64,000 nt of DNA, taken from Novipirellula galeiformis (GTDB taxonomy: Bacteria > Planctomycetota > Planctomycetia > Pirellulales > Pirellulaceae). Numbering within the stretch: position 1 is the stretch's first letter; each line of letters opens with the position of its first letter. Under the pieces are notes generated by a model. That model searched no databases. It was not told the DNA's origin and saw only the letters and a list, made by a program, of their open reading frames with translations. The position numbers and the translations under genes were made by a program. The stretch covers positions 295,461-359,460 of the forward strand of contig NZ_SJPT01000008.1 in the NCBI RefSeq assembly GCF_007860095.1, in the 5' to 3' direction. Positions 24,504 through 48,691 of the stretch are shown piece by piece.

Positions 24504-25637
24504 ATGCGTCGTTTGGTCCTTTCCCTCTTCAGTCTGCTATTTATCTCTATGACGTGCACTGCTAGCGAACCGATAATTTTTGTCTCCGCGTTCAAGCCGG
24601 GCGACGAAGGCGCTATTCATGCCTTTCGGTTTGATACTCAAACGGGCACATTAAAGCCGTTAAATCAAACCACCGGCATTGGGCATCCGTTCTTCATGGC
24701 GCTCTCGCCCAATGGGCGATTCTTGTATGCGATTGATGCCGAGCATTTCGGTGGCGAGGAGGATGAATTCATCGCGGCGTACGCCATCGCAGGCGAGACA
24801 GGAAAGCTAACGCGGTTGAACCGACAATCGACGCGTGGAACGGCGTCGTGCTATCTCGACGTGGACGCCAGCGGGAAATCGGTGGTGGTCGCGAACTATA
24901 CGTCCGGCAACGTTGCTGCATTGCCGGTACGCGAGGATGGATCGCTCGAGGAAGCTGCCTCGTTTATCCAACACGAAGGATCTAGTGTCGATCCTAAGCG
25001 TCAAAAGGGACCGAACGCACACAGTATCGTGATCAGTCCCGATAACCGCTTTGCATTGGCGGCCGATTTGGGGATCGACAAGGTGTTGATTTATCGACTC
25101 GATGCGGACAACGGCAAACTGGTCGCAAGCGACGTGCAACCGTTCGCGAAATTGCCACCTGGCTCGGGACCTCGCCACTTGACCTTCGATCCGAGCGGTC
25201 AACGGGTGTATGTCATTAACGAGTTGACGAACACGGTGACCTACTTCACCTATGGCACGGAATCGGGCACGTTAACGCCTCAGCAAACGATTTCCACGTT
25301 GCCCGAGGGTTTCTCCGGTACGAGCAATTGCGCAGACTTGAAAATCACGCCGGATGGCCAGTTCTTGTACGGCACCAATCGTGGGCACGACAGTATCGCG
25401 ATCTATCGCATCGGTTCGGATGGCCGGTTGAGTCTGGTCGGTATTGAACCCAGCTTGGGTGGCGGCCCACAGAATTTGTTGATCACTCCCGACGGTCGCT
25501 GGTTAATTTGTGCGAACATGGTCGGGAACAACGTGAGGGTGTTTCGAATCGATTCAAAGACCGGTGGGTTGACCGCTAGCGGAGATCCGATTTCGGTCTC
25601 CATGCCAGCCTGTGTGCGTTGGTTGTCGTCAAATTAA
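24504..25637 (+). CDS. Lactonase-family (7-bladed propeller) exported protein
   Basis: 377 aa from the ATG at 24504, which has an AGGAAACGAG ribosome binding site and begins the signal peptide MRRLVLSLFSLLFISMTC. Blades carry the recurrent F-x-x-x-P-x-G/N-R-F-x-Y signature (MALSPNGRFLYAID; LTFDPSGQRVYVIN; LKITPDGQFLYGTN; LLITPDGRWLICAN). This is the 6-phosphogluconolactonase / carboxy-cis,cis-muconate cyclase-like family (PF10282). The secreted location argues against a role in the pentose phosphate pathway; a sugar-lactone hydrolase is more plausible (inference). Confidence 0.9.
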   Translation: MRRLVLSLFSLLFISMTCTASEPIIFVSAFKPGDEGAIHAFRFDTQTGTLKPLNQTTGIGHPFFMALSPNGRFLYAIDAEHFGGEEDEFIAAYAIAGETGKLTRLNRQSTRGTASCYLDVDASGKSVVVANYTSGNVAALPVREDGSLEEAASFIQHEGSSVDPKRQKGPNAHSIVISPDNRFALAADLGIDKVLIYRLDADNGKLVASDVQPFAKLPPGSGPRHLTFDPSGQRVYVINELTNTVTYFTYGTESGTLTPQQTISTLPEGFSGTSNCADLKITPDGQFLYGTNRGHDSIAIYRIGSDGRLSLVGIEPSLGGGPQNLLITPDGRWLICANMVGNNVRVFRIDSKTGGLTASGDPISVSMPACVRWLSSN

Positions 25638-25727
25638 ACAATTCAACACGTAATGAAATGTGATCGATAATCACAACCCGACGCGTAAGTTTTGAAGTTG
25701 CGTTATTGCCGTTTTCCAGCAAATCAC

Positions 25728-25789
25728 AACCCGAAGCGTGAGCGAGGGACCGAATCAGAAACGATAGTCCCTCGCTGACGCGTTGGGTT
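25728..25789. repeat. Imperfect 23-bp inverted repeat (intergenic palindrome)
   Basis: Left arm 25728-25750 (AACCCGAAGCGTGAGCGAGG...) and right arm 25767-25789 pair with about three mismatches around a 16-nt loop. A partial copy (CACAACCCGACGCGTAAG) sits just upstream at about 25673. It lies after the lactonase stop and could act as a bidirectional transcript end or a REP-like dispersed repeat. Confidence 0.65.
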
Positions 25790-25853
25790 ATCTGAACCGT
25801 GAATCATACGTTTACCGAATGGCACGTCTGTGCGGGCTTAACGACCTTTAAAG

Positions 25854-27149
25854 ATGAGTATCCAAGCAATGAAGTCTAAAACAATCGCAAACTCGCTTTC
25901 TTCTTCGACGCGGCGGCAATTTCTCGCCACCGCCACCGCCGTGACCGCTGGCGGTTTGGTTCTGCCTAGCAGCGAGTTGCACGCGGCAGCGTCCGACATT
26001 CGTTCCACGGATCACTTTTGGTATCGGCTTGCCCCGGAAGGGCCGTACATCGATTCCCAGCGTGGGAACAAGGCGTTTGGCTTCGGGCTCGGCAAGATTT
26101 ATCTGTCCGAGGACAATGGAAAAACGTGGCCGCATGAGGCGGTGTTTCGCAATGCGGATAACATCACGTTCAGTTGCATTCTTAGTAGCGGAAACATCGT
26201 CTTTGCCACGCGAACGAAGCTTTATCTGAGCACCGATAATCTGAAGACACACAAGCAGATCATCGTCAAGGATCTTGATGGCAGCGATTACATTCCGCAC
26301 ACGCCATTGGATCCGAACGCTCCAGGATGGTATTTCCATCCGCTCGATGGCGAGCACACGTGGGACGTCGACGGGACGGAAATGTTGGTGTGGGGCAATT
26401 ACTGCAACGTGCTTGGCGGCGCGGTTCCCGTCAACATTTATTACTCGACCGACCAAGGTGAAACGGTCAAAATTGCTTACGCGTTTGGAAAAAATCCAAC
26501 GTTCCAACAACCGGGATCCAAGGAACAAGATCGGTTGGGCAACGCCGACAATCCGGTGGTGGCTCGGCACATTCACTCGGTTGCCTATAACCCGGTTGAG
26601 AATGCATTTTACGCCTGCACCGGTGACCACGATCGTGGCGACGTGCACGAGTGTCATTGGTTGCGTGGCACCTATGACGCGGCAAATGATTCTTGGGATT
26701 GGAAGGTTCTTGTCTCGGTCAATTCCAATTCGCGTTTCAAGTCGGGCGGCATCAACTTCGTTGATGGACGGCTTTATTGGGCCGCTGATGCGAATGGCAA
26801 CAACGGTACGATGCCTCATGACCGTGGCCTTTTTCACTGTGATCCCGCCGACATTGCCAATGTGGAAAAGCACACGATGATGTTCAATCCGAAATATGAG
26901 TCGGCGAACATGATCATCGAAGACGATGTGATTTTGTCAGCACATTACGCGCCGGCTTCGCCTTATAACACCGGGTTCATCGTTTCAACGGACATGGGCA
27001 AGTCTTGGGCTCAGTACGACTTGAAGGAATTCGGGAAACGCTCGCCCACACGTTTTCATAAAAAGAACAGTGACGGATGGTTCCGAGTCGATCTGCGAAA
27101 GGTCTGGATCGAGCGTGGCGAAGTGTTATTCATCAAACCTAAACCGTAA
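25854..27149 (+). CDS. Tat-exported sialidase-like (BNR-repeat) protein
   Basis: 431 aa. The N-terminus has a twin-arginine signal (STRRQFLATATAVTAGG). Asp-box/BNR-type motifs appear as YLSEDNGKTWPHE, YLSTDNLKTHK, YYSTDQGETVK and VSTDMGKSW, placed as expected for blades of a sialidase-fold propeller. Catalytic sialidase residues cannot be confirmed by eye, so enzymatic activity is uncertain. It is 4 bp upstream of the DUF4838 gene and most likely co-transcribed with it. Confidence 0.82.
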   Translation: MSIQAMKSKTIANSLSSSTRRQFLATATAVTAGGLVLPSSELHAAASDIRSTDHFWYRLAPEGPYIDSQRGNKAFGFGLGKIYLSEDNGKTWPHEAVFRNADNITFSCILSSGNIVFATRTKLYLSTDNLKTHKQIIVKDLDGSDYIPHTPLDPNAPGWYFHPLDGEHTWDVDGTEMLVWGNYCNVLGGAVPVNIYYSTDQGETVKIAYAFGKNPTFQQPGSKEQDRLGNADNPVVARHIHSVAYNPVENAFYACTGDHDRGDVHECHWLRGTYDAANDSWDWKVLVSVNSNSRFKSGGINFVDGRLYWAADANGNNGTMPHDRGLFHCDPADIANVEKHTMMFNPKYESANMIIEDDVILSAHYAPASPYNTGFIVSTDMGKSWAQYDLKEFGKRSPTRFHKKNSDGWFRVDLRKVWIERGEVLFIKPKP

Positions 27150-27153
27150 GTGA

Positions 27154-29742
27154 ATGTTTATGCCGAATGTGAAACGTCGTTACCGTCGCGCGGGAGTGTT
27201 GATTGCCTTCGTTGCATGGTGGATCGTCCCGCTGAGTTCGTTGCCGGCTCAGACGCCGCCGGAAGTCATCTTGGCATCGGAGGGGCAATCGCGGATGCCG
27301 GTTTTGGTCCATCGCGAAGCCGCTACGGAGGTGCGTGAGGTTGCCACGGAGCTCGCCGATTATCTCGGCCGTATTAGCGGGACGGCGTTTCCCGTTGAAG
27401 AGGCTGTCGCGGGGGCGGGAATCGCCGCCGGGAAACGAGGGGTCGTGGTCGGATTGGTCTCGAGTTTCACGGACCTTCCTTTTGCGATCGACTTTCCATC
27501 GGGCACCGCGGTGCGTGATCAAATCGTACTGCGAACGACGAACGAGGGGCTCTATGTGCTCGGCACAACCCCGGCGGCGGTCCAATCCGCCGTGTGGGAC
27601 TTTCTGCATCGGCAAGGGTATCGGCTCTTTTTTCTCACCGATACTTGGGAGGTTGTGCCAAAACGTCCGCATTTGACCGCGGCAATCAATGTCGTCGAGC
27701 AGCCTGATTATGTCACGCGGGATGCACCTCGCGGTGCGCCGTGGTCGGACCGGGACTTGTGGAATCGGTGGCAGCGACGCAATCGCATGAATTCGTCCTT
27801 TGCGTTAAGCACGGGACATGCCTATGGCGGCATTGTCCGCCGCAACGCGAAAACGTTTGCGGAGCATCCTGAGTACTTTGCTTTGGTCGCCGGAGAACGC
27901 CCCCGCGGTGGGAATGCCAAATTCTGTGTTAGCAATGCCGGGCTGCGGCAAGTCGTTGTCGCGGATGCCATCAAGCAGATCAACGATCGTCCCGAGAGTG
28001 ACAGTGTTTCGCTCGACCCGTCCGACGGTGGCGGTTGGTGCGAGTGTGAAGCGTGTCGCGAAATGGGCAGTGTCAGCGACCGAGCATTAACGCTTGCGAA
28101 CGATGCCGCCGCCGCGATCAACGACCTCGGGCTGGGAGAAAAGTATGTGGGCATGTATGGCTACAACGAACATAGTCCGCCGCCCAGCATCAAGGTGCAC
28201 CCCAACGTCGTGATCAGCGTCGCGACCGCGTTCATCCGAGGTGGACACTCGATCGAAGAGCTCGTCACGGGATGGCAAACTCAAGGTGCCGTCCTCGGGA
28301 TTCGCGATTATCACGACGTCTTTGCATGGAGTCATGATCTACCTCGCAGCGCACGCGGTGGCAACCTTGACTATCTCACACGCACGATTCCTTGGTTTCA
28401 TGAACACGGTGCACGGTTCATGAATTCTGAGAATATGGATAGCTGGGGTGCCAATGGCTTGGGGTACTGGATCACCCCGCAATTGCTCTGGGATGTGGAC
28501 AATGCTGAGCGAGTGGATGCGATTGTCGAGGACTTTCTCGACCATGCGTTTGCCAAGGCGAAAGAGCCGATGCGTACTTTCTATGCATTGATCAACCGCG
28601 ATCACGACTCGGTTCGTTCGCACGAGGACGTGGTCGCGCGGATGTATCGCGCTCTGGATCAAGCCCGGATGTTGGCGAAGGATCCGCAGGTGCACGCCCG
28701 GCTTGACGATCTGGTGCTCTACACTCGTTATCTCGATCTTTATGGCAAGTACCGAAGCGCCGAAGGCAAGGCGAGACAACAGGGGTTCGAGCGGGTGTGG
28801 CGACATGCCTATCGAATGCGCGACCGGATGATGCTCTCGACCGTCGCCCTTTGTCACCGGGATCGATTTCGTGATCGCAGCGTGCAAGTCCCCGACGAGG
28901 CAAAGTGGAGCGTGGCCGAGCCGACGAACCCCTGGAAGAGCAGCCAGCCGTTTGATGAAGCGGAGATTGCCGAATTGTTGGCTGCGGGTATCGCGGCGAA
29001 CCAACCGACGGAGCTCGACTTTACGGCAAAAAAATTCAGCGGTGATCTCGTGCCCGCTACACAATTGAATCTGCCGCATGTGCCGCCGGGGCGTTACGAC
29101 CAACGTGGTCGCGGTCGACAGCAAGTCTATACGTGGCTTCCCGAAAATCATCGTCAGATCGAATTGGACGTCACCGGCGGGATGATCAAGCACTACCGCG
29201 ATCGCGGCAACGTCAAGTTTTCGCTTTATTCATCCAAAGAAGCGACACTCGATGCCGTCGACCAAAACGACAGCGTGCCTCCAGACGGCGAGCCGCGGCA
29301 GATCGTGCTGACCAGCCCTTTTGATGGGCTGCATCGAATCGAGTGGAGCGATGGTAGTGATATGACAAGGGTTGTTTTGCCAGCGGAATTGCCGTTGACG
29401 ATTCGCTCGACGCTGGAAGATCCAATGCGGCTGGGCGGACGATGGGATCTTTATTTCTACGTCCCACGCGGCACCGCGGTGGTCGGCGGTTACAGCAACG
29501 CAACTCGAGGGAAGATGCTCGACGCAGACAGCAATGTTATCTTTGACTTCGGTACGATGGATGCGGCCGGGTACTTCAGCGTGCCGGTGCCGGAGGGACA
29601 GGACGGCAGGTTTTGGAAGTTCTCGGATTCTCGCGGCAGCCGGATGTTGATGACCGTTCCACCTTACTTGGCGACGAGCGTCGAGACGTTGTTGTTGCCA
29701 CGCGAAGTGGTCGAGGCCGACAAGAGGCCGTCGCCACGTTAA
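27154..29742 (+). CDS. DUF4838-domain exported protein, glycosidase-like
   Basis: 862 aa with an N-terminal signal anchor (RRAGVLIAFVAWWIVPLSSL). Residues about 45-160 resemble the non-catalytic GH20 domain-2 fold (REVATELADYLGRISGTAFP). The DUF4838 core includes GHAYGGIV, EHPEYFALVAGERP, KFCVSNAGLRQ, SLDPSDGGGWCECEACREMG and YNEHSPPPSIKVHPNV. The last 200 residues are beta-rich. Members are often encoded in polysaccharide-use loci and may be glycosidases, but activity is not established. It starts 4 bp after the sialidase-like gene. Its stop is followed after 15 bp by the inverted-repeat array. Confidence 0.85.
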   Translation: MFMPNVKRRYRRAGVLIAFVAWWIVPLSSLPAQTPPEVILASEGQSRMPVLVHREAATEVREVATELADYLGRISGTAFPVEEAVAGAGIAAGKRGVVVGLVSSFTDLPFAIDFPSGTAVRDQIVLRTTNEGLYVLGTTPAAVQSAVWDFLHRQGYRLFFLTDTWEVVPKRPHLTAAINVVEQPDYVTRDAPRGAPWSDRDLWNRWQRRNRMNSSFALSTGHAYGGIVRRNAKTFAEHPEYFALVAGERPRGGNAKFCVSNAGLRQVVVADAIKQINDRPESDSVSLDPSDGGGWCECEACREMGSVSDRALTLANDAAAAINDLGLGEKYVGMYGYNEHSPPPSIKVHPNVVISVATAFIRGGHSIEELVTGWQTQGAVLGIRDYHDVFAWSHDLPRSARGGNLDYLTRTIPWFHEHGARFMNSENMDSWGANGLGYWITPQLLWDVDNAERVDAIVEDFLDHAFAKAKEPMRTFYALINRDHDSVRSHEDVVARMYRALDQARMLAKDPQVHARLDDLVLYTRYLDLYGKYRSAEGKARQQGFERVWRHAYRMRDRMMLSTVALCHRDRFRDRSVQVPDEAKWSVAEPTNPWKSSQPFDEAEIAELLAAGIAANQPTELDFTAKKFSGDLVPATQLNLPHVPPGRYDQRGRGRQQVYTWLPENHRQIELDVTGGMIKHYRDRGNVKFSLYSSKEATLDAVDQNDSVPPDGEPRQIVLTSPFDGLHRIEWSDGSDMTRVVLPAELPLTIRSTLEDPMRLGGRWDLYFYVPRGTAVVGGYSNATRGKMLDADSNVIFDFGTMDAAGYFSVPVPEGQDGRFWKFSDSRGSRMLMTVPPYLATSVETLLLPREVVEADKRPSPR

Positions 29743-29757
29743 TGGGTTCTCTTTCTA

Positions 29758-30014
29758 TTTTCTAACCCTCCATTTTCTAACCATCTCCGGATTCGCCCCG
29801 CGTGATCCGGCAATACGTTTTACGCTGAATGTTTGATTTTCGGATTCATTTGGAGCGAAAGCGCCGTACGGCTGGCCTGAAGATGTTTCACTGGATCAAC
29901 GTCAGCGACCGTCGGGTACGACTGGAGTCGGTCGGATGGAGGTTAGAAAATAACGGGGTTAAAAAATGGGATGCCTGCGTAGACTCGATTCATGAACGGT
30001 CTGTCTGTTTTTTA
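29758..30014. repeat. Inverted-repeat element A (257 bp, deletion derivative)
   Basis: The left arm has two TTTTCTAACC motifs separated by 5 nt (29758-29782). The right arm has GGTTAGAAAA and GGTTAAAAAA (29941-29967). Then comes a tail (TAGACTCGATTCATGAACGG) and the next unit. The interior keeps only the left 35 bp of element B and the part of B that encodes its last 35 codons. Confidence 0.8.
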
Positions 30015-30918
30015 TTTTCTAACCCTTTATTTTTTAACCATCTCCCGATCAACCTCGTGCGATTAGGCAATGCGATGCCGGTTGAATGCCCGATCCCGAT
30101 ACCACGATTGACCAGCGAGCAGTTTGGCACTCTCGATTACAGAGTGATGCCCATCGCATTTGATGTCCACGATCAATTGGGTTGCCATTGGAAGGAACAT
30201 GCTTATCAATCGGAAATGCATGTTAAGGTTTTGGAAAGGTTTGACAGTTCCGCATGCGAAGTCCCGCTAAGAATCTCATTCGGAAATTTTCGTAAGACTT
30301 ATCGGCTTGACCTGATCGTTGATTCGATCGGACTTTATGAACTCAAGGCCGTCGCGGCCATTGAGAAAAATCACATTGGTCAGGTTCTGAATTATCTTCG
30401 TTTGCTCGATGCTACTCGGGCCAAAATTATCAATTTCCGTCCGCACCGCGTCGAGTCCAAGTTCGTCAACTGTTCGGACAGATTAGTACAGCGCCGAGCA
30501 TTTGATGTTGAGTTAGGGGAGTATCGTGGTCCAAAGGTCTTGCCTGAGACATCGATTGCAATGTTCCGGGATCTCGGCACCAAGCTGTCTAATGCGCTTT
30601 ACACTGAATGTTTGATTTCAAATGTTGGGCGAACCGAGCCACGGCAAATTTGGCGAGACCGAAGCATTTACCAGAATTTTGATCTGGTTGAGCAAGATGA
30701 GGCGTTCGTAGTCACGTCGCTGGAGGCAACGAACTTTGATTTCCGGATTCATTTGGAGCGAATGCGCCGTACGGCTGGCCTGAAGATGTTTCACTGGATC
30801 AACGTCAGCGACCGTCTGGTACGGCTGGAGTCGGTTGGATAGAGGTTAGAAAATAGCACGGTTAAAAAATGAGATGCCAGCGTAGACTCGATTCATGAAT
30901 GGTCTGTCTGTTTTTTAA
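30015..30918 (+). mobile_element. Inverted-repeat element B (904 bp) carrying the GxxExxY gene
   Basis: Same arms as the neighbouring units (left 30015-30040, right 30843-30872) and the same 3' tail, but 646 bp longer. The gene begins 35 bp after the left arm and its TAG (30840-30842) abuts the right arm, so the element is a compact arm-gene-arm package. I propose it is the full-length parent of units A, C and D. There is no transposase. It resembles in layout the inverted-repeat-flanked intervening sequences known from some 23S rRNA genes, but it is intergenic here. Confidence 0.65.
30075..30842 (+). CDS. GxxExxY-family protein, PD-(D/E)XK nuclease-like, with C-terminal extension
   Basis: 255 aa from the ATG at 30075; the frame is open further upstream only because it reads through unit A. 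The family core is recognised by LGCHWKEHAY (residues 35-44, with Glu41 and Tyr44 kept but the eponymous Gly replaced by His38), YRLDLIVD (Asp79/Asp83), LYELKAV (Glu89-x-Lys91, the ExK of the nuclease site) and IGQVLNYLRLLDATRAKIINF. Usual members are about 130 aa; here 120 more residues follow, ending with FRIHLERMRR and KMFHWINVSD, present as fragments in units A, C and D. Biochemical role of the family is not established. No clear Shine-Dalgarno is visible. Confidence 0.8.
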   Translation: MPVECPIPIPRLTSEQFGTLDYRVMPIAFDVHDQLGCHWKEHAYQSEMHVKVLERFDSSACEVPLRISFGNFRKTYRLDLIVDSIGLYELKAVAAIEKNHIGQVLNYLRLLDATRAKIINFRPHRVESKFVNCSDRLVQRRAFDVELGEYRGPKVLPETSIAMFRDLGTKLSNALYTECLISNVGRTEPRQIWRDRSIYQNFDLVEQDEAFVVTSLEATNFDFRIHLERMRRTAGLKMFHWINVSDRLVRLESVG

Positions 30919-31177
30919 TTTTCTAACCCTCCATTTTCTAACCATCTCCGGATTCGCCCCGCATGATCCGGCAATACGCTTTACGCTGAATGTTTGATTT
31001 TCGGATTCATTTGGCACGAATACGCCGTCCTGCTGGCCTTAAAATGTTTCACCGGATCAACGTCAGCAACCGTCTACTACGACTGGAGTCGGTTGGATAG
31101 AGGTTAGAAAATAGCACGGTTAAAAAATGAGATGCCAGCGTAGACTCGATTCATGAATGGTCTGTCTGTTTTTTTAA
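30919..31177. repeat. Inverted-repeat element C (259 bp, deletion derivative)
   Basis: Same arms, tail and deletion junctions as unit A, but with more substitutions in the residual coding part (a CACGAATACGCCGTCC variant). It shares the TAG and the ATAGCACGG right-arm spacer with B, so it is closest to B in its right half. Confidence 0.8.
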
Positions 31178-31436
31178 TTTTCTAACCCTCCATTTTTTAA
31201 CCATCTCCCCGATTCCCCCATGCAATCCGGCAATACGCTTTGTGCCGAAAGTTTGATTTTCGGATTCATTTGGAGCGAATGCGCCGTACGGCTGGCCTGA
31301 AGATGTTTCACTGGATCAACGTCAGCAACCGTCGGGTACGGCTGGAGTCGGTCGGATGGAGGTTAGAAAATAACGGGGTTAAAAAATGGGATGCCAGCGT
31401 AGACTCGATTCATGAATGGTCTATCTGTTTTTTTAA
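31178..31436. repeat. Inverted-repeat element D (259 bp, deletion derivative)
   Basis: Arms and tail as in the other units. The right half (TAACGGGG spacer, TGG instead of TAG) matches unit A rather than B or C, so two subtypes alternate in the array. Confidence 0.8.
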
Positions 31437-31558
31437 TTTTCTAACCCTCCATCTTCTAACCAACTCTTCGCATTTCACCAGTCGCTTGGAATGATGACGA
31501 AACCGTTAACGCGACTGATGCGGGAACAATCGAGGTTAAAAAATCGAAGGATAAAAAA
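31437..31558. repeat. Inverted-repeat element E (minimal hairpin, about 122 bp)
   Basis: The left arm is nearly identical to the other units; the right arm is GAGGTTAAAAAATCGAAGGATA-like at 31531-31558. The interior (about 70 bp) is unrelated to the GxxExxY gene. It ends 80 bp before the aat start codon, so it may affect aat transcription. Confidence 0.65.
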
Positions 31559-31638
31559 CCTGGGGCCGACGTGGGCGTTGTGGAAGAACGTTGATCAGAC
31601 GGTTGATCATGGGGTGTTTGCTGGGATAGCATGGGCGG

Positions 31639-32298
31639 ATGGAAATTGCACGCCTGCGAAACGATGACCCGACCTGGTTTCCGCCCTTGGATGCTGCGAT
31701 TTGCACTGACGAGATCGATGGGTTGCTGGCCGTTGGCGGCGATCTAAGTAGCGAGCGTTTGCTCGCCGCGTATCGCAACGCCATCTTTCCTTGGTATGAC
31801 GAAGATGGGCCGATTTTGTGGTGGTCGCCTGATCCCCGCGCTGTCATCTTTTGCGACACGATCCACGTCTCCAAAAGCATGACGCGTCTGATCCGTCGCC
31901 GAACGTTTCACGTGACTTGGAACCAGGCGTTTGAGCAAGTCATGCGCCAGTGTGCGATGCCCCGCGATGGCAATCCCGGTACTTGGATCTTGCCCGAGAT
32001 GATCGAGGCCTATCGTCAACTGCACCATCGTGGACATGCCCAGTCGTGTGAGGTGTGGAGCGGCGAAGAGCTCGTCGGAGGCATCTATGGCGTCACGATT
32101 GGCAATGTGTTTTGCGGCGAATCGATGTTCCATCGGCAACCCAATGCGTCCAAGTTGGCACTCATCTCAGTCGCGCAATGCGAACGCTTTGATGTGATCG
32201 ATTGCCAATTCCCCAGCGAGCATCTGTTGTCGATGGGAGCCGAGATGATTTCTCGCGATGCGTTTGTTCGTTTGGTGAAGTCAGCGCTGGGCAAGTGA
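31639..32298 (+). CDS. aat: Leucyl/phenylalanyl-tRNA--protein transferase
   Basis: 219 aa, full length. It transfers Leu or Phe from tRNA to N-terminal Lys/Arg of proteins, marking them for ClpS/ClpAP degradation (N-degron pathway), in the cytoplasm. Family motifs are clear: GLLAVGGDLSSERLLAAYRN, GIFPW-type AIFPWYDEDGPILWWSPDPR, TWILPEMIEAYRQLHHRGHA, SCEVW, GGIYGVTIGNVFCGESMFH and DCQFPSEHLLSMGAEMISR. It stands alone between the repeat array and a convergent DUF1501 gene 22 bp away. Confidence 0.97.
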   Translation: MEIARLRNDDPTWFPPLDAAICTDEIDGLLAVGGDLSSERLLAAYRNAIFPWYDEDGPILWWSPDPRAVIFCDTIHVSKSMTRLIRRRTFHVTWNQAFEQVMRQCAMPRDGNPGTWILPEMIEAYRQLHHRGHAQSCEVWSGEELVGGIYGVTIGNVFCGESMFHRQPNASKLALISVAQCERFDVIDCQFPSEHLLSMGAEMISRDAFVRLVKSALGK

Positions 32299-32320
32299 GC
32301 CGTGACTCGGATTTCACCCT

Positions 32321-33718
32321 TCACGCTAGAATTTCTTGAGGGACGCTGCCGTGCACGTCGGTCAAGCGAAAGTCGCGGCCTGCGTAACGGTAGGTCAGAC
32401 GCTCGTGGTCGATGCCGAGCAGATGCAAGATCGTGGCGTGCAAATCATGGGTATGGACTGCTCCTTCGGCTGTCATGATGCCGTGTTCATCCGACGCCCC
32501 ATGCACGAATCCTCCTTTCACCCCGCCTCCAGCCATCCAGGACGAGAAGCAATGGTTGTGGTGCTCGCGGCCAGCGTGGTCTACCTGTTTATGAAACGGA
32601 GTGCGACCAAATTCCGTTGTCCACACCACCAGCGTACGCTCCAGCATGCCTCGTTGTTTTAGATCGGCTAGTAACCCGGCAATCGGTTGATCGATCGCTT
32701 TGGCCAACCGCTCGTGGTCGCCCATGTTTCCGTGAGAATCCCAGTTGGAACTTGAGCCGACATCGATCAGCTCGAGAAAACGCACTCCGCGTTCGGCCAA
32801 TCGACGCGCAACAAGGCATTGCCAACCAAACCCACTGGTGGCACCACGTTGTAAGCCATACATCTTCATCGTCGCGTCGGTTTCACCTGAAAGATCGAAT
32901 GCCTCGGGAGCTTCACGCTGCATCCCAAACGCCGTTTCAAACGAGCGGATACGTGCATCGAGTGCTTGGTCGGCATCGCGTTGTTGCAGATGAGCACGAT
33001 TCAATTGATCCAACATCGCGAGCTCCATTTGCTGCAGCTCGGCGGGGACTTTGGCGTGGATGTTCGGTAGCGGTTGCGCGCCGGGCATGACGTGCGTTCC
33101 CTGGTGACAGGCGGGCAGAAAATCGCTGCCCCAGGTTTGCGCACCTGCGTACGGAGCCGCCGGGGCGAGCACCATGAAGGACGGCAAGTTTTGGTTTTCC
33201 GTTCCCAAACCGTAGCTGACCCAAGCACCGGCACTCGGTCGAGCGAACTGGGCCGATCCCGTGTGAGCGGCCAACGTCGCCTTATCATGACCGTCACTTT
33301 CACAGTGCATGGCATTGAGCACGCACACGTCGTCGATTACCGAGCCCAAGTGTGGGAATAGATCGCTGACCCACGTGCCGCTCTCCCCATACTGTTTGAA
33401 TCCCCATCGCGGCTTGATCAGGAACCTTTCAAATTGGCCCGATTTATTGAGCCAACGGGATGCGGTGATCGATTTGCCATGGTCGGCGGTGAGCCGAGGT
33501 TTGTGATCAAACGTGTCGACATGTGAGACACCGCCAGTCGAAAAAATGAAGATCACGCGATCCGCGGTAGCGGGGAAATGACCTGGTTTGGCAACCAGCG
33601 GATCGGTCGATGCGGCTTGAATCTCGTTCCACATTCCCGCCAATGCCAACGCACCAAAGCCACCCGAGGCGCGGTGCAAGAATTCGCGGCGGTTCGTTTG
33701 CAAAGGAATGTTCATCAT
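32321..33718 (-). CDS. DUF1501 protein (Tat-exported, sulfatase-fold-like)
   Basis: 465 aa from the ATG pair at 33715-33718; the frame is open to 33754. It begins with a Tat-type signal (TNRREFLHRASGGFGALALAG). Conserved DUF1501 blocks are FIFSTGGVSHVDTFDHKP, LFPHLGSVIDDVCVLNAMHC, LPSFMVLAPAAPYAGAQ, VVWTTEFGRTPFHKQ, GREHHNHCFSSWMAGGGVKG and HDLHATILHLLGIDHERLTY. The fold is related to alkaline phosphatase/sulfatase. In planctomycetes it is nearly always encoded with a PSCyt/PSD1 protein, as here (next gene upstream, 135 bp gap), and the pair probably acts together in the periplasm. Substrate unknown. Confidence 0.93.
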   Translation of the reverse strand: MMNIPLQTNRREFLHRASGGFGALALAGMWNEIQAASTDPLVAKPGHFPATADRVIFIFSTGGVSHVDTFDHKPRLTADHGKSITASRWLNKSGQFERFLIKPRWGFKQYGESGTWVSDLFPHLGSVIDDVCVLNAMHCESDGHDKATLAAHTGSAQFARPSAGAWVSYGLGTENQNLPSFMVLAPAAPYAGAQTWGSDFLPACHQGTHVMPGAQPLPNIHAKVPAELQQMELAMLDQLNRAHLQQRDADQALDARIRSFETAFGMQREAPEAFDLSGETDATMKMYGLQRGATSGFGWQCLVARRLAERGVRFLELIDVGSSSNWDSHGNMGDHERLAKAIDQPIAGLLADLKQRGMLERTLVVWTTEFGRTPFHKQVDHAGREHHNHCFSSWMAGGGVKGGFVHGASDEHGIMTAEGAVHTHDLHATILHLLGIDHERLTYRYAGRDFRLTDVHGSVPQEILA

Positions 33719-33853
33719 TGATGCTCGGGAAAAAAGGATGTCGGTTGACGTCATTTCACGTACACGAAATCACCGGACTATCGTCGTTGATCGCTCCGCG
33801 GTCCAAACGTGAGTTCGCGGCGCGAACAACGATAATCATAAATTGGGGCCTAC

Positions 33854-36800
33854 TCAGTCCACGTACAAGAATTCATTGCTCGATAACAACACGCGTGCGA
33901 TCGCGGCCCAGGCGTCCGTTGTCGGAGTCTCCGTCGAGGTTTCCACGCTGGCAAGCTTGTGCTCGTAGGCAGAGAGGAATGTCAACGTCTGGTTCACTTC
34001 GGCGTCGGTAGCGACACGCCCCAGGATGCGTTCGTACGTCAAGCGAACACGCGACGCATCATCCTCCGACGATGCCAGTATCTGATTCGCAAACGCCTCG
34101 GATTGCTGATGCACGAAGGGAGAATTCATTAGAAACAACGACTGAGTCGGAGTGGTCGTCGGTAGCCGTTTGGGAACGCTCACGTTCGGGTCCGCCGCAT
34201 CAAACATCGCTAAAAAAGGATGTCGACGGTTCCGCTGGAGCATCAGATAAATGCTGCGGTGATTGGAGTCGTAAACCGCGTGAAAGGGCCTGTGAATCGA
34301 AAAGGACCAAGTTTCGACCGCTGGAAAGGGATGCGGTGGTGGAATCGTACGATCGAGTTGACCGCTGACGGCGAGCATCGCGTCGCGAATCGATTCCGCA
34401 TCGAGCGGTCGTCGCGCGTAATGCCACAGCCAACGGTTGCTTGGGTCGGCAGTCAGGTTCTTGGCGTGATGCTTGCTCGCCAGGGTGTAGGTTTGGGAGT
34501 TCATCATCATGCGATGAAGCGATTTGATTGACCAACCCGAGGCGATGAATTCCGAGGTCAACCATTCGAGCAATTCCGGGTGACTTGGTAACTCACCCCT
34601 GGCTCCAAAATCGCTTGGCGTTGAAACCAAGCCCTGACCAAAATGCCATTGCCATACTCGGTTCACAATCACGCGAGCGGTTAAGGGATTGGAGGGTCGG
34701 GTCAGCCAATCGGCTAATTCGAGTCGCCCGCTGCCCGTGGATTCGGGATCCAGCGTGTCGCCGCCGAGGACTTCCAAGAAACGCCGTGGAACTTCGTCGC
34801 CGAGTCGCTCGGGTTCACCGCGTCGTTGCAGTCGTGTGTTTGTCGGCTTGCCTTCGCTGACACCGTAGGCGACCGGGTAAGCCGGCGTCGCGAGTGTCTC
34901 GTCGCGTTGTTTCGTCAGTGCCGCTAGTTGTGCGTTCAATTCCGCTAAGCGTTGTTGCGACGCGAGCTCCGGTTCTGGGACGACGACCGGCCCGCTGCCC
35001 GGAATCCCAAACGAGATATCTTGGAGTCCAAGGTTGTCGAGGTCACGCGTCGGAGCCGGTCCTTCGACATGTCCGATCCCGTCGCAGATAAACGTGTCGG
35101 CAATGCCATCCCAATTTGGATTGAGTGGTTTGTCATTGAATTCGCTGAGGTCGTCGATCGTGCCCACAATGCCTGAGTAGGTTTGCTTGGCTTGGTCGAG
35201 CGTCACTCGCAGCGTGTACCAAGTTCCGGGTTCAAGCTTGCGAATGATTTCCCATTCTCCGCCGCTGCGAATCGCGAACTCGGTAGCAGTCACACTGCAC
35301 TCGATGGCCAACGATTGGACCACTCCACGGCCGAGATAGAAACGATACGCCCCCTGCGGTGTCGATGCGGCACCGGTGCGGAAGTCGATGGTAAAGTGGA
35401 TTTGCTTTCCCGGAACCGAATGCAAGGCTTGTTCAAAACTGTAGCGGATCCCGTCGTGCGGTTTGGGGGCTGCCACGCGGACACCCCGTGTTCCCGCGGG
35501 ATGAATGTGGGTGTAGGGGCTCTGTGCGTCGGCGAGAACCACGTTGGGGCCACCGCTGAACCACGGCTTGGACGGTGGTTTGTCGAGCGTTTGGGCTTCC
35601 CAGCCCAGGTCGACTCCGCCAGCGAACGATTTGCCATCCAATTTCGATTGCTCTCGCGTTAGACGTGCAATGTCACCATTCAAGCGAGCCAGTTCGTCCG
35701 CTTTCACTTTGTCAAGCCGAACGGCGTCCGCAGCTGGCACCAAGGCGGGGAAGTGAGCGGGCCGCTTGTGCTCTTCGCCCCCAGGAAATGCCCACTTTGT
35801 GCTTTCAAAAATGCCATACAGTGCGTAGTAATCGGCAGCTGACACGGGATCGAATTTGTGGTCGTGACAGCGAGCACATCCCAGCGACAGCCCCAGGATC
35901 GAGCGACCCACCGAATCGATCACATCGGCGAAGTCAAGGTATTGATAAGTCGTATTGGGGGCGTAACCGTATCGTTTTCCAATGGCGAGGAAACCGGTCG
36001 CGGTCACCCGCTCGGCGTACAGATCCGCAGGGCCGTCCTGGGCTAAAATGTCGCCCGCGATCTGTTCGCGGACAAATTCGTCAAACGGCTGGTCGCGATT
36101 GAACGCATTCACAACCCAGTCGCGATACTGGCCTGCTTCGGGGACGGGATAGTCGGATCCATCACCGGCCGTGTCCGCGTAACGCGCAACGTCTAACCAG
36201 TGGCGTCCCCAACGTTCTCCGTAAGCCGGCGATTGCAGCAAACGATCCACCAGCGATGCGAACGCATTCGGCGATGAATCATTTAGAAACTCGTGAACCT
36301 CTGCTGGAGTCGGTGGCAACCCCGTCAAGTCGAACGTCGCGCGGCGGATCAAAGTGCGTTTGTCTGCCTCGCCAACCGGGGTTAACTCGTTTTGTTTCAG
36401 TTTCGCGCGAACAAAGGCGTCCACCGGATTTGCCGCCCAACGAGCGTCCTTGACTTCGGGAGGGGAGACCTTTGACAACGGTTGAAACGACCAGAACTGT
36501 TTTGCCGCTTCGAGATCCATGGGGCCCGATGCCGATGCGCTCTCCATCGCCTCGACTCGCGGGTCAATCGCACCTTGCTTGACCCAAGTGACGAGGTGGG
36601 CGATTTCATCCGGGGTCAGCTTTCCATCGGGCGGCATCTGCGCCGCGTCATCGGAGCCGTTTACAGCCTTGATCAACAAACTGCTCTCGGGATCCCCCGG
36701 CACAATCGCCGCGCCACTATCGCCTCCGTGCAACCACCCCTCGCGTGAATCGAGTCGCAATCCCGATTCCTGTTTCTTCGCTCCATGGCACTCGATGCAG

Positions 36801-47126: not shown

Positions 47127-47231
47127 TACGGAGCTGAGGATTACGGAGCTGAGGATTACGGAGCTGAGGATTACGGAGCTGAGGATTACGGAGCTGAGGA
47201 TTACGGAGCTGAGGATTACGGAGCTGAGGAT
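47127..47231. repeat. 15-bp tandem repeat, seven identical copies
   Basis: Seven perfect units of TACGGAGCTGAGGAT. The ceramidase-like gene's stop codon (47216-47218) lies in the last unit, so the end of that protein (ESSAP) is set by the array. Identity of all copies suggests recent slippage expansion. Confidence 0.92.
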
Positions 47232-48691
47232 TCGGGGGTGGCCCACAGCAAGTTGAGTGATTCGATGGTTTGCTCGACCAACACTTGTCCGCCTTCGGGG
47301 CCGACCTCGTTGCTTTCCACGATCGCGCTGTAACCGCCTCCGCGTGCGGCTCGCTCGCTGGGCAGGTAAGTGCCGGAACCGGCCAATTGAATAACGAAGG
47401 TTTGCAGCGCAGGGCTCCGTGCTTTCATTTGGATTCCATAGTCGGTGTAGAGCTCGAAATCGTTTGTGGCGATGGCGATGTCGCCCAAGCGAATGGTGTG
47501 CAGTTCCATTTTGTAAGGCTTCGATTCGCCAGCCTGTTGGCGCTCAAATCGATCCACCGCTTCTTGGTGCCATAGCATGCGTCGTTTCTGTTTGGGATCG
47601 GTGGATAGATCGCTGACTTTCGCTTGCAGCGCAAAGGCTTCTTCTCGAGTGACAATGCGTTCGGGCAATTCGATCGTCTTTACTTTGTGAACCAGCGGCA
47701 CATCGGCGTGCCGCTCTTGGCTGGCGCCGGCGTAGGCCTCTTCCCAGCCAGCGACAATGCGTTGGGACAGCTCTTCGAGCCGTGTCAGTCCACGCAGTTT
47801 TCGCATCCGTTCTTCCGCCGGCTTGCTGTACATCAAGTGAGGCGATTGGTCGCCTGCGGCGCCGGTCCAAGCGAGGACGTGTAGATCCTTGCCGTACTTC
47901 TCTCGCAACGCTTCACGAACCGGGTGCCAAAAGTCGGCATTGACCGCCATGCCCGACTCGACTTCTTGCGATGGACAGGCGACGTTGATCGCGGTGGCGA
48001 TTAGGTTTTCTTGGTCATCCCAAAAACAAAGGACTTCAACTCCGTGGTCTTCGTAGCCTTCGATGCCGCGGAAGTTTGGATTGTTAGTGTTACCGTACAT
48101 CGCCGCGGTTCCGTTGGCGTAGGTGGTACGCCGATTCTGAGCCACCACGGCGTGACCGAGTCCCCAGCCGACGTTGCCAGCGCGTCGCGTTTGCCATGCA
48201 TTGACCGCGGCGTCCGCGACACGATCGGCCAAAAACTCGATGTATTCCTTCGGTTGCATAATGCCTTCGGTGGGCAATTCGTAAAGACCTTCTCGCGTGA
48301 CGGGAGCGGTGTGCGTGTGGGTGGCATTCATTACCAACTTGCTGGCGTCAAAGTCGGGCAGTCGATCTTTGAGCCGTTGACGGACCTTCTCGGGAATCCC
48401 TTTGTTAATCAAGACCAAATCGCACGATACCATGATCGCTTGGTCGAGCACTTTGTCGCCCTCACGCGATTCCAGGGCGAGTGCGGTCGCCATCGCAGCG
48501 CTCTCGACCGTGCGGGCAATCCGTGTGGCAAATTGGCCTGAAATCGCAACGGGCTCATCGGGCGTGATGCTGATCGTCGCTCCGCCGATGTGCAGCTCGG
48601 ATGCCGTCAGTGGACGTGCCGGCGAGGTCATAAGGACAACGGCACTAACGATGGCAAAGCAGGAGCACCATCGTGGTATACAGTGAGGCAA
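47216..48691 (-). CDS. Neutral/alkaline ceramidase-like exported protein, TTG start
   Basis: 491 aa. The start is TTG at 48691, with a GGAGAGA ribosome binding site 6-7 nt upstream; the next in-frame ATG would cut the signal peptide (FAIVSAVVLMTSPARPLTAS). HIGGATISITPDEPVAISGQ and the metal-binding NATHTHTAP match the N-terminal region of neutral ceramidase-like proteins, as do AWTGAAGDQSPH and the IRLGDIAIATNDFELYTDYG segment. Zinc-dependent amide hydrolysis is known for the family; many bacterial relatives act on other, unknown substrates. The C-terminus runs into a 15-bp tandem array. Confidence 0.85.
   Translation of the reverse strand: MPHCIPRWCSCFAIVSAVVLMTSPARPLTASELHIGGATISITPDEPVAISGQFATRIARTVESAAMATALALESREGDKVLDQAIMVSCDLVLINKGIPEKVRQRLKDRLPDFDASKLVMNATHTHTAPVTREGLYELPTEGIMQPKEYIEFLADRVADAAVNAWQTRRAGNVGWGLGHAVVAQNRRTTYANGTAAMYGNTNNPNFRGIEGYEDHGVEVLCFWDDQENLIATAINVACPSQEVESGMAVNADFWHPVREALREKYGKDLHVLAWTGAAGDQSPHLMYSKPAEERMRKLRGLTRLEELSQRIVAGWEEAYAGASQERHADVPLVHKVKTIELPERIVTREEAFALQAKVSDLSTDPKQKRRMLWHQEAVDRFERQQAGESKPYKMELHTIRLGDIAIATNDFELYTDYGIQMKARSPALQTFVIQLAGSGTYLPSERAARGGGYSAIVESNEVGPEGGQVLVEQTIESLNLLWATPESSAP

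What the first reader, a model, noticed from the sequence alone, without database searches (positions are those of the whole stretch)
29758..31558. Arm-gene-arm element with a GxxExxY nuclease-like gene and tandem deletion derivatives
Seen: four tandem units with periods 257, 904, 259 and 259 bp share doubled TTTTCTAACC arms, inverted at the far end. Only unit B has the gene. Units A, C and D equal B minus two segments: one between AATGCG at 30069-30074 and AATGCG at 30591-30596 (522 bp), and one between TTTGATTT at 30611-30618 and at 30735-30742 (124 bp). 904-522-124=258, the observed size. This is the autonomous/MITE relation, but with a PD-(D/E)XK-like protein and no transposase. Inference: the element is mobilised or maintained as DNA or RNA through its hairpin, possibly by the GxxExxY protein.
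Basis: partly seen in the sequence, partly recalled or inferred. Interest (0 to 1): 0.85.

Follow-up and report, generated by a model that had tools for sequence, protein, structure and literature searches.

The report
Nuclease gene inside self-repeating DNA arrays
In a bacterium related to Rhodopirellula, a nuclease gene sits in a row of shortened copies of itself marked off by paired short DNA tags, and the same gene-between-tags arrangement recurs in other bacterial groups, which suggests an unrecognised kind of selfish DNA whose spreading enzyme would be a nuclease rather than a transposase.

Summary
Units A, C and D are unit B minus 522 and 124 bp (89-90% identical); a fifth small unit E was missed. 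It is not a local oddity. PDDEXK_3/GxxExxY genes often lie between inverted sets of short tandem iterons: 53 of 79 testable unique genes of the window's two-domain subfamily have doubled iterons (spacing 13-18, mostly 15 bp) on both sides, against 0 of 265 control intervals; 41 of 69 single-domain relatives, from many phyla, have iterons at 9-11 bp, against 3 of 288. The long iteron is a conserved 11-mer, GRYARRAARAT, whose variants follow the protein more than the host. Gene-less satellites and dispersed palindromes with such iterons occur, up to 80 pattern hits per carrier genome and none in five genomes without PF13366 hits. A sister species has only an E-like unit at this site. RAYT genes checked do not carry these arms (0 of 18). 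In one genome the arms behave as recognition sites rather than paired stems. Most likely: a nuclease-driven, REPIN-like selfish element with deleted non-autonomous copies. Nuclease action on the arms is inferred, not shown.

The parts
29758..30014 (+). Unit A, gene-less satellite (B minus 522 and 124 bp)
   Evidence: 89.5% identical to B with both segments removed
30015..30918 (+). Unit B, gene-bearing unit
30075..30842 (+). GxxExxY / PDDEXK_3 gene, 255 aa, two domains; E41, D79, E89, K91 of the presumed PD-(D/E)XK site present
   Evidence: invariant columns (and in other numbering); AlphaFold model pLDDT 92.3
30069..30590 (+). First segment (522 bp) absent from satellites, bounded by AATGCG direct repeats
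30611..30734 (+). Second segment (124 bp) absent from satellites, bounded by TTTGATTT direct repeats
30919..31177 (+). Unit C, satellite
   Evidence: 88.8% identical to deleted B
31178..31436 (+). Unit D, satellite
   Evidence: 89.9% identical to deleted B
31437..31558 (+). Unit E: fifth arm-bounded unit with another interior; an E-like unit (its interior differs from this one) is the only unit seen upstream of aat in sister genome G013
29758..29782 (+). Left arm A, two iterons at 15-bp spacing
29941..29967 (-). Right arm A, two iterons at 16-bp spacing
30015..30039 (+). Left arm B
30844..30870 (-). Right arm B, begins 1 bp after the stop codon
30919..30943 (+). Left arm C
31102..31128 (-). 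Right arm C
31178..31202 (+). Left arm D
31361..31387 (-). Right arm D
31437..31461 (+). Left arm E (second iteron TCTTCTAACC)
   Evidence: family D3
31534..31558 (-). Right arm E, degenerate
   Evidence: pair I1

Best explanation
The array is a local cluster of a REPIN-like selfish element whose full-length form carries its own PD-(D/E)XK (PDDEXK_3/GxxExxY) nuclease. SHOWN: many of these genes lie between inverted sets of short tandem iterons; iteron type and spacing follow the protein subfamily; in one pair of orthologous arrays arms are conserved more than interiors; gene-less copies with the same arms occur beside the gene and dispersed; the presumed catalytic residues are invariant in the aligned proteins, and the protein is under purifying selection in the pairs tested. 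INFERRED: the nuclease recognises the iterons as double-stranded sites, probably as a multimer (perhaps through the C-terminal domain in the long subfamily), and nicks or cuts at arms. Host repair of the break then copies arm-bounded DNA into the cut site (homing-like spread to other arms), expands the array locally, and loses gene segments by microhomology (AATGCG, TTTGATTT), leaving satellites that can still be served in trans.
For: Association: 53 of 79 vs 0 of 265 (Fisher 5.5e-43) and 41 of 69 vs 3 of 288 (1.4e-31). Long-type spacing occurs in 4 of 69 short-subfamily loci. Iteron/protein Mantel r 0.28, 0 of 1000 permutations (0.21 and 2 of 1000 for protein distance >0.5); the nearest protein in another host has mean iteron distance 1.70 vs 3.30 overall and 2.88 for 8 same-host pairs. 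Dispersed pattern in 14 of 15 chosen carrier genomes and 0 of 5 genomes without PF13366 hits, one control match in all 20. G107: palindromes of about 62 bp at many sites, with the homology between several copies ending at the palindrome. Dispersed iterons resemble those of the own genome's gene (0.85 vs 1.39; 107 of 5000 permutations as low). Own genome: L014 shares a gene-less element with L019 and L037 that ends at the arms. Sister site with an E-like unit only. Arms 0.87 vs interior 0.72 identical between orthologous arrays, 0 of 5000 circular shifts as large. dN/dS 0.06-0.19 in 10 of 10 pairs. E, D, E, K invariant in 31 of 31 aligned proteins and 32 of 32. Best PDB match of the model is SSO0001.
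Against: No movement was observed and no clean empty site with both flanks and a target duplication was found. 26 of 79 long and 28 of 69 short genes lack detectable arms. The array's linkers are repeated with the units, so this array grew by local tandem duplication, which ordinary recombination can do. Gene-piece satellites are a minority: 16 of 157 loci (one of them, L267, added because its satellites had been seen) vs 10 of 306 control ORFs. Palindrome iterons in G140, G152, G154 and G164 are on average 1.07-1.75 mismatches from any gene iteron known there. Many of the 20 G107 sites also share another repeat of about 100 bp nearby, so they lie in repeat-rich intergenic DNA. Left and right spacers match (0.75 around genes, 0.70 in array palindromes, 0.40 between loci), as a stem would. 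Fold match is weak (E 1.6e-3, TM about 0.3). Transposases other than Y1 were not tested.
Confidence: 0.45

Rival explanations
1. Passenger: the arms are ordinary dispersed palindromes moved by another enzyme (RAYT, IS), and GxxExxY genes are captured between them.
For: Pattern hits outnumber the genes in most carriers; some genomes carry iteron types with no matching gene found; 26 of 79 long genes lack arms.
Against: Iteron class and spacing follow the nuclease subfamily; 0 of 18 Y1_Tnp loci in G107, G226 and G000 carry the arms, while several have inverted flanks of their own; five of five genomes without PF13366 hits lack the pattern.
Confidence: 0.2
2. Control array: the iterons are operators or decoys that hold the nuclease in check (or RNA antitoxin-like repeats, as in type III toxin-antitoxin loci), and the nuclease has a cellular or defence role.
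For: Iterons beside the gene on both sides; arms conserved over interiors in one orthologous pair; repeats next to a nuclease gene recall ToxIN (listing and abstract starts only).
Against: Arms also lie after the stop codon and at many other sites; no PADLOC match for the window protein (E up to 0.1; weak Cas4 matches for two relatives, E 0.0054 and 0.041); no covariation in 10 palindromes.
Confidence: 0.15
3. RNA-level element like the 23S rRNA intervening sequence: arms pair in RNA and are processed, making insertions harmless.
For: S23 (PF05635) genes of the same genome are also framed by inverted short repeats in 6 of 12 loci; 3 of 3 dispersed palindromes folded are far more stable than shuffles; spacers match across gene flanks.
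Against: No Rfam match in 20 of the 47 named short loci or in window 25000-36000; unequal iteron spacing in the window and no covariation in 10 palindromes.
Confidence: 0.1
4. No function: one ancestral arm-bounded unit, ordinary tandem duplication, slippage deletions, neutral decay.
For: Linkers are repeated with the units; deletions lie at 6- and 8-bp direct repeats.
Against: Recurs with different arms at other loci; arms conserved in an orthologous pair; protein under purifying selection; dispersed copies.
Confidence: 0.1

Closest known systems
REPIN / RAYT systems (REP-associated HUH tyrosine transposase; PMC3116915, passages read)
   Same: Inverted pairs of short conserved sequences dispersed in the genome, tandem clusters of them, and an enzyme gene flanked by the same sequences.
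   Different: Enzyme is a PD-(D/E)XK nuclease, not HUH; the arms are doubled or tripled iterons at about 15 or 10 bp spacing; the gene sometimes lies inside arrays of its own deletion derivatives.
PD-(D/E)XK homing endonucleases such as I-Ssp6803I (PMC3943268, passages read)
   Same: Same nuclease superfamily; proposed spread by cutting and repair.
   Different: The gene is carried with its own inverted iterons and satellites; whether it ever lies in an intron or intein was not tested.
23S rRNA intervening sequences with S23 protein (PMC4990558, outline and abstract read)
   Same: Small gene in a short element, regarded as selfish.
   Different: No rRNA found at the loci scanned; different protein.
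COG4636 PD-(D/E)XK paralogs (PMC551604, passages read)
   Same: Proliferating putative PD-(D/E)XK genes with mobile-element-like distribution and no known mobiliser.
   Different: The passages I saw report no preference for mobile elements and mention no flanking repeats; different family.
Cas4 nucleases (PDB 4ic1 SSO0001, recalled to be a Cas4; ACE1 9iab)
   Same: Top fold matches and weak profile matches of the nuclease domain.
   Different: All matches are weak; CRISPR context was not looked for; the C-terminal domain has no confident match.

Membership tests
GxxExxY / PDDEXK_3 protein family | Match over curated cut-off | tested here: met
   PF13366 73.4 bits (cut-off 22); TIGR04256 65.4 bits (cut-off 35)
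GxxExxY / PDDEXK_3 protein family | PD-(D/E)XK catalytic residues | tested here: met
   E, D, E, K invariant in 31 of 31 and 32 of 32 aligned proteins, window protein included; that these are the catalytic residues is inferred
REPIN/RAYT | HUH/Y1 transposase encoded between the repeats | tested here: not met
   Gene is PDDEXK_3; 0 of 18 Y1_Tnp loci of three genomes carry the arms
REPIN/RAYT | Dispersed inverted doublets of the conserved sequence | tested here: met
   (other genomes); in the own genome
Classical MITE/IS pair | Cognate DDE or HUH transposase with the same ends | tested here: inconclusive
   Only Y1_Tnp was sought; DDE transposases were not
Classical MITE/IS pair | Target-site duplication | tested here: inconclusive
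   No clean two-flank empty site found
Homing endonuclease gene | Cuts an allele lacking the element | not testable with these tools
   needs biochemistry
23S rRNA IVS | Located in an rRNA gene | tested here: not met
   No Rfam match in window 25000-36000 or in 20 of the 47 named short loci (117,875 bases); the named long loci were not scanned
Type III toxin-antitoxin | Processed RNA repeats that inhibit the toxin | not testable with these tools
   no covariation in 10 palindromes of G107 is weak evidence against an RNA fold

The most novel reading that the evidence does not exclude
PDDEXK_3/GxxExxY nucleases are the mobilising enzymes of a previously unrecognised, phylum-spanning class of prokaryotic selfish DNA: the nuclease recognises paired iterons, copies arm-bounded DNA through break repair, and carries both satellite arrays and dispersed mini-palindromes in trans, with no transposase, recombinase or reverse transcriptase. 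It would explain a large class of short palindromic repeats in environmental genomes.
Probability: 0.35. Interest if true: 0.92.

Novelty: new variant of a known kind. Interest (0 to 1): 0.8.

Why it matters
GxxExxY/PDDEXK_3 proteins are widespread (85 of 119 genomes of the window's family) and functionally unexplained; two papers in the held library name GxxExxY, neither about its function in the passages I saw. Linking them to specific iterons and dispersed palindromes gives a testable function, a candidate new type of DNA mobility based on a restriction-type nuclease, and an origin for some unexplained palindromic repeats.

Tried and rejected
Hairpin/RNA as the selected feature: not supported by the dispersed palindromes of G107, but left and right spacers match around genes and in arrays, so it is not excluded. 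RAYT as mobiliser: no arms at 18 of 18 loci. rRNA intervening sequence: no Rfam match in what was scanned. Two identical copies in G222 (L267/L268): rejected as evidence of dispersal, since 6.3 kb are identical throughout and look like one sequence assembled twice. Empty site of L014 in G013/G077: none. Empty site of L287 in its genus: relatives too diverged. G226 array versus five congeners: the array is not beside the shared right flank, G229 has a lone doubled arm and G223 a single iteron, but the left flanks are not syntenic, so it is no clean empty site. A first iteron regex was too strict and was dropped for template-free words. The 11-mer consensus was aligned to a template, which biases it: real template score 10.15 vs 7.20 for random 22-mers of the same flanks. 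In one search the gene boundary of L056 was wrong; it was mended, before the tests. Arm strings in papers found nothing relevant. Viral contigs gave one weak relative. No sequence-profile match in PDB for the short-subfamily alignment (E up to 1).

Full report
OBSERVATION. The window (G000:C8:295461-359460 of a 7.4-Mb genome) holds five arm-bounded units at 29758-31558. The satellites keep the 3' part of the gene; A and D still encode the family-conserved W and N of the C-terminal domain (W241 and N243), while C has lost the W codon. This argues that satellites derive from the gene unit and not the reverse. The protein is 255 aa: a PDDEXK_3 domain plus a C-terminal part that only a two-domain subfamily has among the proteins aligned. 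AlphaFold gives a confident model (pLDDT 92.3, pTM 0.88); its best PDB match is SSO0001 (4ic1, E 1.6e-3, TM about 0.3; recalled to be a Cas4), with VC1899 and Cas4-family ACE1 proteins next, all weak; a profile search also gave 4ic1 first (E 0.0086).

SAME ANATOMY ELSEWHERE. The own genome has four PF13366 loci. L011 and L009 show the same plan with quite different arms: one full gene in a row of short units bounded by inverted arms, the short units keeping the 5' end of the gene. L012 is truncated and did not pass the inverted-flank test. In other genomes: L057, L082, L077 (about 16 gene-less units of about 120 bp in the 2.7 kb shown), L120 and L124 (219- and 191-bp units on both sides), L142 and L158, L267. 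Satellites that carry recognisable gene pieces were found at 9 of 82 long and 7 of 75 short loci (L267 among these was added because its satellites had been seen), against 10 of 306 control ORFs (p 0.003), so this form is a minority.

ARMS ARE A FAMILY TRAIT. Inverted-flank score at least 30: 20 of 30 testable long (33 loci), 25 of 42 testable short (47 loci), controls 15 of 1119 (the 80 named loci kept of 419 found). With a template-free test for a 10-mer repeated at 13-18 bp and inverted across the gene: 81 unique long genes plus the window, 79 testable, 53 positive, 0 of 265 control intervals; spacing 15 bp in 162 arms, 14 in 71, 17 in 35, 16 in 33, 13 in 4. The short subfamily has 9-11 bp spacing: 41 of 69 testable (of 74 unique) vs 3 of 288; with a 9-base word 25 of 69 vs 1 of 288; the long-type spacing occurs in 4 of 69 vs 0 of 288. 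Short loci with arms come from records titled Acidobacteria/Terriglobia, Gemmatimonadetes, Chloroflexi/Anaerolineae, Deltaproteobacteria, Kiritimatiellae, Opitutaceae, Magasanikbacteria and others. 26 of 79 long and 28 of 69 short genes lack such arms.

ARMS LOOK LIKE RECOGNITION SITES OF THE ENCODED PROTEIN. The long iteron is an 11-mer: G 51/53, G or A 50/53, C or T 52/53, A 48/53 (T in the window), R 53/53, R 51/53, A 49/53, A 41/53, R 51/53, A 52/53, T 52/53 (template bias measured). Its variants track protein distance (Mantel r 0.28, 0 of 1000; 0.21, 2 of 1000 among distant pairs) and are closer to the nearest protein's iteron in another host (1.70) than to iterons in the same host (2.88, 8 pairs) or overall (3.30). 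In orthologous arrays L011 and L122 of two species arms are 0.87 and interiors 0.72 identical, 0 of 5000 circular shifts as large. In ten palindromes of G107 there is no covariation between the halves, so DNA recognition rather than pairing seems to be what is conserved there. Against this, left and right spacers match better than between loci around genes (145 of 194, 0.75) and in array palindromes (120 of 171, 0.70; between loci 0.40), though inheritance of one arm from another could also do that.

COPIES AND POLYMORPHISM. Own genome: 34 doubled-arm hits, control 0; 8 in this array, 17 in one 15-bp tandem run at C2:666210-666474, 9 elsewhere. L014 shares 79-81% identity with L019 and L037 over a gene-less element of 160-170 bp that begins and ends at the arms; L019 and L037 share a longer stretch with each other. 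In 20 chosen genomes the long-type pattern has 0 to 80 hits: 14 of 15 carriers (G226 80, G013 76, G077 66, G107 38; G098 none) and 0 of 5 genomes without PF13366 hits; the reversed control pattern hit once in all 20 (gene-adjacent hits included, list of places cut by the tool). Of 20 G107 sites fetched (of 38 hits), nine palindromes of 60-74 bp and one of 126 bp were seen; homology between several copies ends at the palindrome, but many of these sites also share another repeat of about 100 bp nearby. Dispersed iterons resemble those of the own gene (0.85 vs 1.39 mismatches; 107 of 5000 permutations as low). That test used 78 of the 94 hits printed for 7 genomes: 8 at or beside genes were left out, plus 3 further G140 rows on the contig of a gene, and 2 overlapping and 2 repeat-sequence rows of G152, chosen by me; G013 rows and genomes cut from the listing were not used; three of the gene iterons (one for G140, two for G013) came from loci that failed the two-sided test. 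At the window's site, sister genome G013 has an E-like unit alone (its interior differs from the window's E), while G077 has the 3' end of a B-type unit (97% identical residues 233-271) directly before such a unit, at a contig end. The 862-aa gene before the array was not seen there in G013, where a relative of the 431-aa protein lies next to the unit.

SELECTION. Ten protein pairs give dN/dS 0.06-0.19.

MECHANISM AND RIVALS. I favour a nuclease-driven REPIN-like element: recognition and cutting at iterons, repair that copies arm-bounded DNA, local expansion, and microhomology deletions that make satellites. Recognition, cutting and movement are inferred. The strongest rival is a passenger gene in palindromes moved by another enzyme; its Y1/RAYT version is weakened (0 of 18 loci), other transposases are untested. 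A control or decoy role, an RNA-level role and pure decay remain possible at lower weight.

LITERATURE. 'GxxExxY' occurs in two held papers, neither on function in the passages seen. PF13366 occurs in one (listing only). Arm strings gave none. A search on planctomycetes, miniature repeats, nuclease and tandem listed nothing on this among the 12 of 114 shown. REPIN/RAYT (PMC3116915, passages) is the closest analogue; PMC3733652 (passages) reports REP families in Planctomycetes and Verrucomicrobia. Subscription papers were not searchable, so earlier description cannot be excluded.

Noticed in passing
L043-L054 (own genome): Four-helix-bundle S23 (23S_rRNA_IVP) genes, 12 matches in this genome, are also framed by inverted short tandem repeats in 6 of 12 loci (above the best of 50 shuffles; for example AGTGAGG units in L045, TCGTACTCG in L047), and L044 lies in a tandem array of them.
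   Followed up: partly
G000:C2:666210-666474 (L019): The arm iteron has expanded to an 18-copy 15-bp tandem run inside one dispersed element.
   Followed up: partly
L077, 300-3000: About 16 tandem gene-less units of about 120 bp on both sides of one short GxxExxY gene.
   Followed up: partly
L072, L057, L067: In some short GxxExxY genes the start codon lies in the arm, so the iterons are translated into repeats such as NHEKHETHEK or DEQDTQD.
   Followed up: no
L106, L109, L148, L154, L160, L218: A related group of long GxxExxY genes, several of them in one genus (g36), lacks two-sided doubled arms and may be domesticated.
   Followed up: no
window 27154-29742: The 862-aa gene before the array was not seen in G013 between the corresponding neighbours.
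   Followed up: no
window 47127-47232: Perfect 7-copy 15-bp tandem repeat (TACGGAGCTGAGGAT).
   Followed up: no
L316, L319, L322 (G107): Y1/RAYT genes have strong inverted flanks of their own (scores 90-103) without these arms.
   Followed up: partly
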